A stretch of 64,000 nucleotides of DNA from Dysidea avara (lineage: Eukaryota > Porifera > Demospongiae > Dictyoceratida > Dysideidae), in the NCBI RefSeq assembly GCF_963678975.1, contig NC_089277.1, positions 24,998,672 through 25,062,671 on the forward strand, written 5' to 3'. This document shows, piece after piece, positions 20,500-34,351 of the stretch (within the stretch, counting starts at the first letter, position 1; each line of letters starts with the position of its first letter). A program made the translations under genes and the position numbers. The notes beneath the pieces are model-generated. The model did no database searches. It saw nothing but the letters and a program-made list of their open reading frames with translations, and had not been told where the DNA came from.

Positions 20500-23311
20500 T
20501 GCTGCTAAAGCTCCATTCTTGGCCCGTTTCAAAGTGGTAAGATGTGGAACAGCTGAGCTAGAAAATATGAACATTCTAAGTTAGTATAATGTTTCCAACA
20601 CACCATATCATGTGATATTTAGGTGACCAAAGACCATCTCAGAATCTGTTAAATGGTGCAGTATGGCAGGCGTGTATTTTCAAAGTAGGAGATGATGTTC
20701 GTCAGGTACAGAGAGCTATACTAATAATAAGCTTTTAATCTTGTATTAGCCATTTTACGCTTCTAATACACTCTTCCATTCAATTTGATACAATTTGCGT
20801 GTTTCCTGTTGCTAGGACATGCTGGCTCTACAAATTATGGAGTTGTGTAAGAATGTGTTCCACCAAGTTGGACTGATGCTCTACCTTGTACCCTATCGTG
20901 TGGTGGCTACTGACCCTGGTGTAAGTTACTACTTCTGTCTTCATTACTTTTATTTTATAATTTTAACATCGAAGCCACATAAAGCGTGGTGAAATTTGAT
21001 AGTAAGTGTTCATGGTGTTCAACTATGTATAGGGAAGATGTGATGCACTTACGTATTTGTGTACAGCTGCTTGTTTGTGCTCTTGATTTTTTGCTTGTAG
21101 TGTGGAGTGATTGAGTGTGTGCCAGATTGTAAGTCCCGAGATCAACTGGGCAAGTTAACCAGGGGCTCTCTGAATGATTACTTTTATGATAAGTTTGGAC
21201 ATGGTGACTCCCAGATATATCAGAAGGTATGTACATATGTAATACTTTGGTATATATAATACGGACAGATGTATTTTATAGTATGTGCGTGGTTTAGTTG
21301 TGATCATTGCTTCTTTTATAGGCAAGGGCCAACTTTGTTCACAGCATGGCAGCATATTCCTTGTTAACTTACCTGCTGCAAATCAAGGACAGGCACAATG
21401 GAAACATCATGATCACCAAGCATGGACACATTGTACACATCGGTAATGACTCTGTGTGTTGTTGTTGTTGGCATTCTTGTTGTTGTTGCGTGTGTGTATT
21501 CGTGTGTGCATGTGAATGTGTGTTCGTGCATGCATGTCATATGCCATTATAATGGTATTTATCCCCATGGAAATCACTTGCTTATGATGACGCTTTGTGG
21601 TTATACATAGTACGTAGCTACACAACAGTATGAAACATTTTTAATGGAGTATTCATATGCTCTAATAGAGCAGTAGTCATAAAGGGATGTTCAGGTAGCT
21701 CAGGCTCTATTATCAGTGTCAGAAGTGAGTAGAATGCCATACTTAGATTCTGTATGATTTTTTTCAATAAAGATTGAAAACTGCATCAGTTGTCCAGTAT
21801 ACCATTGTACAATTGACATTGCTGGTTAGGTTTACCCCTACCATTTTGAAGAGGGCAAACAATTAAACCTTATATTATACTGTAAAGTATTATTGTTCTT
21901 TTGGTATGATATAAAAGTTCACCAATGAACAAGTCATGCTACATACAATAATGCATTCAGCTACCACACACATTAAAGTACACACACAACCAGCAATTCA
22001 TGTGTACTGTTTATTTCTAGTAATGTTTGTTTTGTATTTATGGCCATTTTCATTATCACAGATTTTGGGTTTCTGTTTGAGTCATCACCTGGCGGTAATA
22101 TGGGGTTTGAACCAGACTTCAAGTTTACACAAGAGATGTTAGATGTGATGGGTGGAAAGAACTCTGACTCGTACAAGTGAGTCTAAAATACCATGCACAC
22201 ACAATCAAGTGTTATGTATAAATATAAATGTTCAGCTGTTGAGAGGTGAATGAAATGTATAATGTTGTATGTACAGTACATTACATGAATAGCTTTTGGA
22301 AAATTGATGTGTTTCATTACAGAGAGTTTACAAGTTTATTTGTAAGAGGATACTTAGCAATCAGGTTAGCTTTTGGCATTATTATATGTGGTATATAGCT
22401 TAACATATACAAATACTAGCTGACATATGTACGTACAATATGTGTATGCAATATATAGCAAATATATATACATGTATATACATATTCTTGTAGACCTTAT
22501 TGTGAAGAGATAGTGTCACTGGTGACACTAATGTTGGACACTGGATTTCCTTGCTTCAGGAAGAATCCCATTGAAGAGCTAAGGTAATGTAACTTACTGC
22601 TATATATTATATGATGGAGGTTGTCCTAAGCATACATGTACATGCATACATACATACTAAACTACTCTGTGTCATACACATCTCTGCTCGTTCAGTACTC
22701 ACTGTGTACATTACTTAGCGATAAGTCACTCCATGCAGTCTGTTATCTCCATGTTTCTTCATGTGTGGCAATATTTGTCATTTTTACAGGGCTCGATTTA
22801 GACCACAATTTTCAGTCAAAGAAGCAGTGAAGTTTATACTGGACAGAATAAATTCTGCTTATCTGAACATTAGGTAGGTACAGTATGTTGACTACATAAC
22901 TGGTAAAAGTGAACTATTAAACTTGTCAAGAGGTACAAATTCCATGTAGATATAAATTGCAGCCATCAATTTTAACCCTGCTGCTTTGCCTAAATAACTT
23001 ATGACTGATTTGCTAATTCTGCCAACAGTTTTCTTTTAAATTTATAATACATATCAAATTGGTTTTCAGTTGTTTTTTTGGCAATATGATAATTTGGTCA
23101 TTTCAAAATTTTAGCTGTCAGCTAAGTTTCTCATATTTTGTAGTCTGGAGAATTTAAAATGTATCAGATTTTTGTATGTACATAAACCATTGACCATAAC
23201 ATTACCCTGGTCATTTATCTTATTATTGACACACACAGGGCTGTGGGGTATGATGTCATTCAGGAGTTACAGCAGGGAATATACCGCAACAAGGCTGATT
23301 CACAGCAATGA
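20500..23311 (+). CDS. PI4KA: PI4KA catalytic terminal cassette, copy 1 (10 exons to the stop)
   Basis: Exons 20500-20579, 20623-20705, 20816-20920, 21101-21226, 21322-21442, 22062-22176, 22323-22364, 22494-22583, 22790-22873 and 23239-23311 (TGA) encode about 306 residues of kinase domain. Visible motifs in order: [12 protein letters not shown], the ATP-lysine strand [34 protein letters not shown], the catalytic loop DRHNGN, the activation loop [12 protein letters not shown], then [15 protein letters not shown] and a C-terminal helix ending [19 protein letters not shown]. The first exon joins exon 23 (11251) in phase to give GTPMQ-S-AAKAP, matching animal PI4KA. The intron so formed is 9.2 kb and hosts SSCC-A and B1. 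This cassette is the nearest acceptor for the upstream gene. The 3' flank has ATTAAA at 23344, but AATAGA at 23423 where copy 2 has AATAAA. Confidence 0.93.
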
Positions 23312-31830: not shown

Positions 31831-34351
31831 TGCTGCTAAAGTTCCATTCTTAGCCCGGTTCAAAGTGGTGAGATGTGGAACAGCTGAGCTAGAAAATATG
31901 AACATTCTAAGTTAGTACATCTTAAATGTTTCCAACACACCATATCATGTGATATTTAGGTGACCAAAGACCACCTCAGAATCTGTTAAATGGTGCAGTA
32001 TGGCAGGCATGTATTTTCAAAGTAGGAGATGATGTTCGTCAGGTACTGGACATGCCAATAATACTTATTTTGGTTATTTTACACCTTTAAGACCAGTTTA
32101 ATGTGCGTACTATAATCCGTGTGTTTCGTGTTGCTAGGACATGCTGGCTCTACAAATTATGGAGTTGTGTAAGAATGTGTTCCACCAAGTTGGACTAATG
32201 CTCTACCTTGTACCCTATCGTGTGGTGGCTACTGACCCTGGTGTAAGTCACTACTTCCATCTTCATTATTTTAATTTAACATTGAAGCCACATAAAGGTA
32301 TATGTTGTAGTGAAATTTGATAGTAAAAGTGTTCAATGGTGTTTAACTATACATAGGGAAAATGTGATGTACTTTTGTGTACAGCTGCTTGTTTGTGCTC
32401 TTAATTTTTTGCTTGTAGTGTGGAGTGATTGGGTGTGTGCCAGATTGTAAATCCCGTGATCAACTGGGCAAGTTAACCAGGGGCTCTCTGAATGATTACT
32501 TTTATGATAAGTTTGGACATGGTGACTCCCAGGCTTATCAGAAGGTATGCAGTATTTTGGTATACATAATATAGACAGATGTTTTAATTGTGATCATTGC
32601 TGCTTTTATAGGCAAGGGCCAACTTTGTGCACAGCATGGCAACATATTCCTTGCTAACTTACCTGCTGCAAATCAAGGACAGGCACAATGGAAACATCAT
32701 GATCACCAAGCATGGACACATTGTACACATTGGTACTGACTCTGTTTGTGTTGTTGTTCTTCTTGTCGTCGTCGTTGTTGTTATGTGTGTCTTTGTGTGT
32801 GCACGTGTATGTGTTTTCATGCATACATGTCATGTGTCATTATAATGGTATTTATCCCATCACTTGTCCAGTATACCATTGTACAATTGACATCGCTGAT
32901 TAGGTTTACCTCTACCACTTTAAAGAGGGCAAACAACTAAACCTTATATTATATTGTAGTCTTATTGTTCTTTTGGTATGATATAAAAGTTCACCAATGA
33001 ACAAGCCATGCTACATACACTAATGCATTTAGCTACCACAAAACCAGTAATTCGTGTATACTGCTGATTTCTTGTAATGTAATGTTTGTGTTATATTTAT
33101 GGCCATTTTCATTATCACAGATTTTGGGTTCCTGTTTGAGTCATCACCTGGCGGTAATATCGGATTTGAACCAGACTTCAAGTTTACACAAGAGATGTTA
33201 GATGTGATGGGTGGAAAGAACTCTGACTCGTACAAGTGAGTCTAAAATACCCACTTATTCCGTGCACACACAACCAAGTGTTATGTATAAATATAAATGT
33301 TCAGTTGTTGAGAGGTGAATGAAGTGTATAGTGTTGTATGTATAGTGCATGTACACGAATAGCTTTGGAAAATTGATGTGTTTCATTACAGAGAGTTTAC
33401 AAGTTTATTTGTAAGAGGATACTTAGCAATCAGGTTAGCATTTGACACTATTATATGCGTGTATAGCTTAACACATACAAATACTAGCTGACATATGCAC
33501 ATACAATATGCGTATGCAGTATGTAGCAAATATAATTTGTAGACCTTATTGTGAAGAGATAGTGTCACTGGTGACACTGATGTTGGACACTGGATTTCCT
33601 TGCTTCAGGAAGAATCCCATTGAAGAGCTAAGGTAATGTAACTTACTGGTTGTATTATATGATGGAGGTTGTCCTAAGCATACATGGACATATGTACACG
33701 CTAGATTACTCTGTGTCATGCATATCTCCTCATTCATCACTTATTGCGTACACTACTTAGCAATAAGTCACTCCATACAGTCTGTTATCTCCATGTTTCT
33801 TCATGTGTGGCAATATTCGTCATTTTTACAGGGCTCGATTTAGACCACAGTTGTCAGTCAAAGAAGCAGTGAAGTTTATACTGGACAGAATAAATTCTGC
33901 TTATCTGAACATTAGGTAAGTACAGTATGTTGACTACATAACTGGTAAAAATGAACTATTAAACTTGTCAAGGGGTACAAATTCCATGTAGATATAAATT
34001 GCAGCCATTAATTTTAACCCTGCTGCTTTGCCTAAATAACTTATGACTGATTTGCTAATTCTGCCAACAGTTTTCTTTTTTAAATTTATAATACATATCA
34101 AGTTGCTTTTCAGTTTTTTTTTGGTAATACGATAATTTGATCATTTCAAAAATTTAGCTGTCAGCTAAGTTTCTCATATTCCGTAGTCTGGAGAATTTAA
34201 CATGTATCAGATTTTTTTATGTACATAAACCGACCATAACATTGCCCTGGTCATTTATCTTATTATTGACACACACAGGGCTGTGGGGTATGATGTCATT
34301 CAGGAGTACCAGCAGGGAATATACTGCAACAAGGCTGATTCACAGCAATGA
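31831..34351 (+). CDS. PI4KA: PI4KA catalytic terminal cassette, copy 2 (10 exons to the stop)
   Basis: Exons 31831-31910, 31960-32042, 32138-32242, 32419-32544, 32612-32732, 33121-33235, 33392-33433, 33543-33632, 33832-33915 and 34279-34351 (TGA). Each equals its copy 1 counterpart in length and phase, and no stop or frameshift is seen. [18 protein letters not shown] and IFKVGDD are intact. Nine residue differences from copy 1: A/V in AAK-P, S/P in QRP-QN, E/G in CGVI-C, I/A in SQ-YQK, A/T in HSMA-Y, M/I in GGN-GF, F/L in RPQ-SV, L/Y in IQE-QQ and R/C in GIY-N. No upstream PI4KA exons are duplicated, so it can be expressed only by splicing from exon 23 past copy 1 or from an unknown promoter. 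Alternative terminal cassette, young unprocessed pseudogene or assembly duplicate are all possible. Confidence 0.85.

What the first reader, a model, noticed from the sequence alone, without database searches (positions are those of the whole stretch)
20500..34351. The PI4KA catalytic domain is encoded twice in tandem as interchangeable terminal exon cassettes
Seen: two ten-exon sets with identical exon lengths and phases, both open to a stop, both with DRHNGN and DFG, downstream of a single set of upstream exons whose last exon (phase 2) can splice to either. Known: animal PI4KA has one catalytic domain. Inference: the locus could make two kinase isoforms through alternative 3' terminal cassettes, or cassette 2 could be a silent passenger.
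Basis: partly seen in the sequence, partly recalled or inferred. Interest (0 to 1): 0.8.

Follow-up and report, generated by a model that had tools for sequence, protein, structure and literature searches.

The report
PI4KA gene with two kinase endings
In this animal-like genome the last ten exons of a lipid-kinase gene, which carry the whole catalytic domain, are present twice in tandem and both copies are intact, so the gene could end in either of two slightly different enzymes, although use of the second ending is not shown.

Summary
Behind one set of upstream PI4KA exons lie two ten-exon cassettes (20500-23311, 31831-34351) with identical exon lengths, phases and AG/GT sites. Both are open to a stop and both encode the kinase domain. 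They differ at 26 of 919 bases and 9 of 306 residues. A genome search found no third comparable copy. The second copy came from a tandem duplication of about 11 kb inside an array of collagen-like genes; the array's next unit has no detectable kinase exons. Patchy divergence (3-16% per 150-column window in the cassette region, more in the spacers) argues against a haplotype artefact. Exons are 3.2-fold less diverged than introns and have no indels, which suggests constraint on both cassettes. The strictest controls are only moderate: P about 0.02-0.04 for substitutions, 0.12 for indels. Best reading: alternative 3'-terminal cassettes, both spliced from exon 11179-11251 (about 0.5). Main rival: a silent passenger (about 0.33). 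Cassette 2 has Gly where human PI4KA and PI4KB have Glu, probably in the ATP hinge. Precedents exist (GNAO, oyster AOX, Drosophila pip), so this is a large member of a known kind. RNA would decide.

The parts
261..11178 (+). Single set of upstream PI4KA exons (22 exon peptides located in the window before exon 23) and their introns; the gene starts upstream of the window
   Evidence: Exon peptides align to human PI4KA and were placed; the whole-window self-comparison shows no second copy of this stretch within the window apart from simple repeats (top 100 of 104 rows seen); PI4K_N lies upstream
11179..11251 (+). Last shared exon ('exon 23' of the window), donor AAG|GTACGT, phase 2
   Evidence: donor log-odds 10.37 against a leave-one-out mean of 7.00 for 23 upstream donors (the 10.37 itself is not leave-one-out)
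13866..14612 (+). Intact collagen-like single-exon gene (248 aa) nested in the 9.2-kb intron before cassette 1
   Evidence: no Pfam family at E<=0.001; the name 'short-chain collagen C4-like' is recalled
18944..19444 (+). Truncated collagen-like copy
   Evidence: residues 2-162 of 248 only
20500..23311 (+). Cassette 1: ten exons coding the PI4KA catalytic domain and stop
23344..23654 (+). 3' end of cassette 1: ATTAAA 23344, AATAGA 23423, AATAAA 23649
23749..24182 (+). 5'-truncated, frameshifted collagen-like copy directly behind cassette 1
27845..29185 (+). Broken collagen-like copy in pieces and two frames
30494..31255 (+). Intact collagen-like gene just before cassette 2
31831..34351 (+). 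Cassette 2: ten exons, same lengths and phases, coding the same domain with 9 residue differences
34384..34473 (+). 3' end of cassette 2: ATTAAA 34384, AATAAA 34468 (aligned with AATAGA 23423 of cassette 1)
34484..34688 (.). About 205-bp insertion with 13-bp inverted ends behind the cassette 2 AATAAA, absent from cassette 1
35446..35877 (+). 5'-truncated collagen-like copy behind cassette 2, homologous to 23749-24182
39221..45416 (+). Rest of array unit 2 (spacer, collagen-like copies); no kinase exons follow

Best explanation
A segment of about 11 kb, from about 40 bases before the first catalytic exon of PI4KA through a run of nested and neighbouring collagen-like genes, was duplicated in tandem (shown by homology). 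Because the break lay in the phase-2 intron before the catalytic exons, each copy kept a usable acceptor in the phase of the shared upstream donor (shown). The most likely working (inferred) is alternative 3'-terminal splicing: the donor at 11251 joins either 20500, giving an mRNA that ends after cassette 1, or, when the pre-mRNA reads through cassette 1, joins 31831 across a 20.6-kb intron and ends after cassette 2. The gene would then make two PI4KA enzymes with the same regulatory body and two catalytic domains that differ at 9 residues.
For: Two intact, splice-compatible cassettes and one upstream set in the window. Exons 26/919 against introns 140/1558 diverged, Fisher P 6e-10, and in both halves separately (P 8e-8 and 6e-4), so patchy gene conversion alone does not explain it. 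0 indels in 919 exon bases against 31 events in 1558 aligned intron bases. N 9, S 14 changed codons; with S held at 14 and cassette 2 neutral, P(N<=9) is 0.021-0.039; without holding S, 0 of 2000 runs. Five of 8 collagen-like copies in the same array are broken, while neither cassette is. Cassette 2's first acceptor scores no worse than cassette 1's (4.79 and 2.16; upstream mean 3.18, sd 2.89, n 20). Against human PI4KA each cassette keeps some human-like states: cassette 1 at residues 5, 33, 95, 143 (33 lies in a poorly aligned loop), cassette 2 at 129 and 293, so cassette 2 is not simply the one decaying.
Against: No transcript evidence. Cassette 1 is proximal and has its own poly(A) hexamers at 23344 and 23649. 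Skipping it needs a 20.6-kb intron, while 20 upstream introns that I could measure are 57-1305 bases. Intact poly(A) hexamers of nested genes lie in that intron. Calibrated on the adjacent truncated collagen-like pair the indel test is weak (P 0.12), and its N:S of 9:5 does not differ significantly from 9:14 (Fisher 0.18). The exon-intron contrast is partly due to constraint on cassette 1 alone. Cassette 2 has changes at E95 and A143, and its exon 5 donor is weaker (1.34 against 3.25). The home-made splice score is poorly discriminating: 192 of 569 intronic AGs score at least as high as the cassette 1 acceptor. No complementary RNA that could steer the choice was found.
Confidence: 0.5

Rival explanations
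1. Silent passenger: cassette 2 is a recent partial duplicate without a promoter, never or rarely spliced to the upstream exons, not yet decayed or kept similar by occasional conversion.
For: No own 5' exons; cassette 1 has its own poly(A) hexamers; three or four residues of cassette 2 depart from human-like states, one of them in the probable ATP hinge; dS 0.057-0.080 is small, so time for decay was short; human PI4KA has two non-processed partial pseudogene copies nearby (PMC4459391, passages seen).
Against: N:S ratio, absence of indels and stops, and intact sites at all 19 cassette 2 splice positions; under neutrality the simulations had no stop in only 37-43% of runs.
Confidence: 0.33
2. 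Cassette 2 is expressed from another start (own promoter, fusion to a neighbouring transcript, or trans-splicing) as a free or fused kinase domain.
For: Intact exons; an intact collagen-like gene ends 576 bases before cassette 2.
Against: No 5' exon of its own was identified; the phase-2 first exon fits the PI4KA donor. I did not search for promoters or other 5' exons systematically.
Confidence: 0.1
3. Assembly artefact: two haplotypes, or two alleles of a copy-number variant, placed end to end.
For: The 3' end of the cassette pair and the adjacent truncated copy are only 3-5% diverged, within the range of allelic variation in some marine invertebrates (recalled); no reads could be checked.
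Against: Divergence is uneven (3-16% per 150-column window in the cassettes; blocks at 69-96% identity across the array), units differ by insertions and by presence of the cassette, exon 23 and upstream are not repeated, and the window lies inside a 40.5-Mb contig.
Confidence: 0.07

Closest known systems
GNAO (G-alpha-o) mutually exclusive terminal exon pair 7-8 (PMC5896119, passages seen)
   Same: Local duplication of the last exons; one upstream set joins either terminal set; homologous C-terminal domains
   Different: Two exons, use shown by transcripts; here ten exons, a whole kinase domain, with intact unrelated genes between, use not shown
Oyster alternative oxidase exon 10 (CvAOXA/B; PMC5589949, abstract and outline seen)
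   Same: Tandem duplicate of the last coding exon used by 3' alternative splicing, one copy changed near functional sites
   Different: Single exon; both variants shown expressed and stress-responsive
Drosophila pip terminal exon clusters (PMC9013439, section 6 and passages seen)
   Different: Eight clusters, treated in that paper among UTR duplications, with competing RNA structures reported; no such pairing found here
Human PI4KAP1 and PI4KAP2 (PMC4459391, passages seen)
   Same: Partial non-processed copies of the same gene, less than 1 Mb away, covering the region of c.5560 but not of c.2386
   Different: Called pseudogenes in that paper; separate loci rather than a head-to-tail copy behind the intact 3' end

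Membership tests
PI4KA (type III phosphatidylinositol 4-kinase alpha) | Catalytic domain closer to PI4KA than to PI4KB or PI3K | tested here: met
   372.4 bits to human PI4KA against 178.9 to the best PI4KB (cassette 1); cassette 2 differs from it at 9 of 306 residues
PI4KA (type III phosphatidylinositol 4-kinase alpha) | Helical and N-terminal PI4KA regions upstream | tested here: met
   466.7 bits over human PI4KA chain positions 670-1341; PI4K_N 80.9 bits upstream of the window
Alternative (mutually exclusive) 3'-terminal exon sets from tandem duplication | Homologous terminal exon sets in tandem with matching phase behind one upstream set | tested here: met
Alternative (mutually exclusive) 3'-terminal exon sets from tandem duplication | Both sets coding-competent and constrained | tested here: inconclusive
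   Both open; constraint on cassette 2 supported at P 0.02-0.04 by substitutions and between 1e-4 and 0.12 by indels, by calibration
Alternative (mutually exclusive) 3'-terminal exon sets from tandem duplication | Transcripts with either set joined to the shared exon | not testable with these tools
   No RNA data at hand
Mutually exclusive choice by competing RNA pairing (as reported for Drosophila pip and PGRP-LC) | Docking site near the shared donor complementary to selectors before each set | tested here: not met
   Duplex energies no better than 60 dinucleotide shuffles (34 and 54 of 60 as good or better); only 600 bases after the donor and 381 before each cassette were tested
Partial pseudogene | Disabling mutations | tested here: not met
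   No stop, frameshift or lost GT/AG in either cassette

The most novel reading that the evidence does not exclude
One PI4KA locus makes two full-length enzymes that share the regulatory body but carry different catalytic domains, chosen by terminal-cassette splicing across nested collagen-like genes; cassette 2, with Gly in place of the conserved hinge Glu, is a kinase with changed nucleotide use or inhibitor response, or a pseudokinase-like competitor for the PI4KA complex.
Probability: 0.2. Interest if true: 0.7.

Novelty: new member of a known kind. Interest (0 to 1): 0.42.

Why it matters
If both cassettes are used, it would be an unusually large case of terminal-exon duplication: a whole ten-exon kinase domain, not one or two exons, made swappable in one step. 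It would give a natural pair of PI4KA enzymes in one gene and an example of how a gene gains isoforms by unequal exchange in a neighbouring gene array. If cassette 2 is silent, it is a young partial duplicate caught before decay, comparable to the human PI4KA partial pseudogenes. In seven paper searches (open-licence library only, listings seen) I saw no report of a duplicated PI4KA terminal cassette.

Tried and rejected
Rejected: a third cassette in the next array unit (tblastn best E 1.4, blastn only the duplicated 3' flank and short chance matches). Rejected on the evidence here: exon-specific homogenisation by gene conversion, because introns inside each half are about three times as diverged as the exons; conversion over longer tracts is not excluded and the uneven divergence suggests some exchange. 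Tried without result: complementary RNA near the shared donor. A home-made splice-site score separates real sites poorly; 2 of 22 upstream acceptor positions that I gave it were dropped because they were not at an AG. Fisher test of N:S against the truncated collagen-like pair was not significant (0.18). The paper searches gave nothing directly useful. Not done: structure prediction, because two domains that differ at 9 residues would not be told apart. The organism was not identified; 'animal-like', and a sponge or similar, is recall from the collagen-like genes.

The genome-wide check for further copies of the upstream exons did not complete: all returned 'busy'. So single copy of the upstream part is shown within the window only. 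The genome search for the 205-bp insertion was also unanswered and not repeated.
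Full report
What is there. The window lies at C6:24998672-25062671 of a 551-Mb genome in 108 contigs, inside a contig of 40.5 Mb. PI4KA runs on the + strand from upstream of the window: Pfam PI4K_N is found in the adjoining 10 kb, and the peptides of 23 exons within 261-11251 align with human PI4KA. After the shared exon 11179-11251 come two ten-exon cassettes, 20500-23311 and 31831-34351, with identical exon lengths and phases, canonical sites throughout and a TGA each. Both begin in the phase that the donor at 11251 requires.

How alike they are. 26 of 919 exon bases and 9 of 306 residues differ (A5V, S33P, E95G, I129A, A143T, M186I, F262L, L293Y, R299C, cassette 1 to 2). 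dN is 0.015-0.017 and dS 0.057-0.080 by four methods. Introns differ at 140 of 1558 aligned bases with 31 indel events. In the alignment with human PI4KA, human has the cassette 1 state at 5, 33, 95 and 143 (33 in a poorly aligned loop), the cassette 2 state at 129 and 293, neither at 186 and 262, and 299 lies beyond the alignment. Residue 95 is Glu in human PI4KA and PI4KB in that call; that it is the ATP-hinge glutamate of this kinase family is recalled, not tested.

How it arose. Self-comparison shows a tandem array. The block from 20461 to about 31364 (cassette 1, truncated collagen-like copy, spacer, collagen-like copies) matches 31792 to about 45416 block by block, with identities from 69% to 96%. 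An earlier layer of the array, without kinase exons, lies at 13.9-19.6 kb. A stretch like that before cassette 2 (31512-31724) recurs at 46851-47030 (68.7%), where a third cassette might be expected, but no kinase exon is detectable downstream. The array holds 8 collagen-like copies by tblastn, 3 of them unbroken. The first carries no Pfam family at E<=0.001.

Is it real and not a haplotype artefact? Divergence in 150-column windows ranges from 0.027 to 0.155, the units differ by insertions and by the cassette itself, and the shared exons are not repeated in the window. This is unlike two alleles placed end to end. The 3' end is the least diverged part (3-5%), and no reads could be examined, so a small doubt stays.

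Is cassette 2 under constraint? Exons are 3.2 times less diverged than introns, overall and in each half (Fisher P 6e-10, 8e-8, 6e-4). Part of this would be expected if cassette 1 alone were constrained. Simulations address that. With mutation set by the introns and cassette 2 neutral, 0 of 2000 runs had 9 or fewer changed residues. With synonymous changes held at 14, the fraction was 0.021-0.039, and cassette 2 omega of 0.1 to 0.5 fitted. Indels: none in exons where 9.1 would be expected on one neutral lineage from the intron rate (P 1e-4). Using instead the truncated collagen-like pair that was copied together with the cassettes (15 mismatches in 427, two internal indels), the expectation is 2.2 and P 0.12. 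That pair's N:S is 9:5 against 9:14 (Fisher 0.18). The sum is moderate support for constraint on cassette 2, probably weaker than on cassette 1.

How it would work. The intron before cassette 1 is 9.2 kb and that before cassette 2, if cassette 1 is skipped, 20.6 kb; 20 measured upstream introns are 57-1305 bases. Cassette 2's first acceptor scores 4.79 and cassette 1's 2.16, both within the range of the gene's own acceptors, but the score discriminates poorly. Behind each stop lies ATTAAA (23344, 34384). A second hexamer is AATAGA in cassette 1 (23423) and AATAAA in cassette 2 (34468), and cassette 1 has a further AATAAA at 23649. A weaker proximal signal would favour reading on to cassette 2; this is inference. 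A 205-bp element inserted behind the cassette 2 hexamer may have displaced its downstream element. No RNA pairing that could make the choice exclusive was found.

What is known. GNAO makes two C-termini from a duplicated terminal exon pair (PMC5896119). Oyster AOX uses either of two last exons (PMC5589949). Drosophila pip has eight tandem terminal clusters (PMC9013439). Human PI4KA has two partial non-processed pseudogenes (PMC4459391). The kind is thus known; the size (ten exons, a whole catalytic domain) and the unrelated genes in between are unusual by comparison with these four.

Verdict. Observation confirmed. Alternative terminal cassettes are the best single explanation at about 0.5, a silent passenger about 0.33, another way of expression about 0.1, an artefact about 0.07.

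Noticed in passing
49786-53420, - strand: Open frames that read like protease, reverse transcriptase, RNase H and integrase of a Ty3/gypsy-type retroelement, in several frames (named from recall, no family search).
   Followed up: no
1188-1259, - strand: tRNA-Pro (anticodon cgg) predicted inside a PI4KA intron, antisense to the gene.
   Followed up: no
10516-11039: Short-period tandem repeat array directly before the last shared exon.
   Followed up: no
17539-17836 and 59690-60577: Two large inverted repeats that match themselves on the opposite strand, 85% and 81% identity.
   Followed up: no
34484-34688: 205-bp insertion with 13-bp inverted ends, MITE-like, in the 3' flank of cassette 2; genome copy number not obtained.
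   Followed up: partly
13866-45302: Array of 8 collagen-like gene copies, 3 unbroken, around and inside the PI4KA 3' region.
   Followed up: partly
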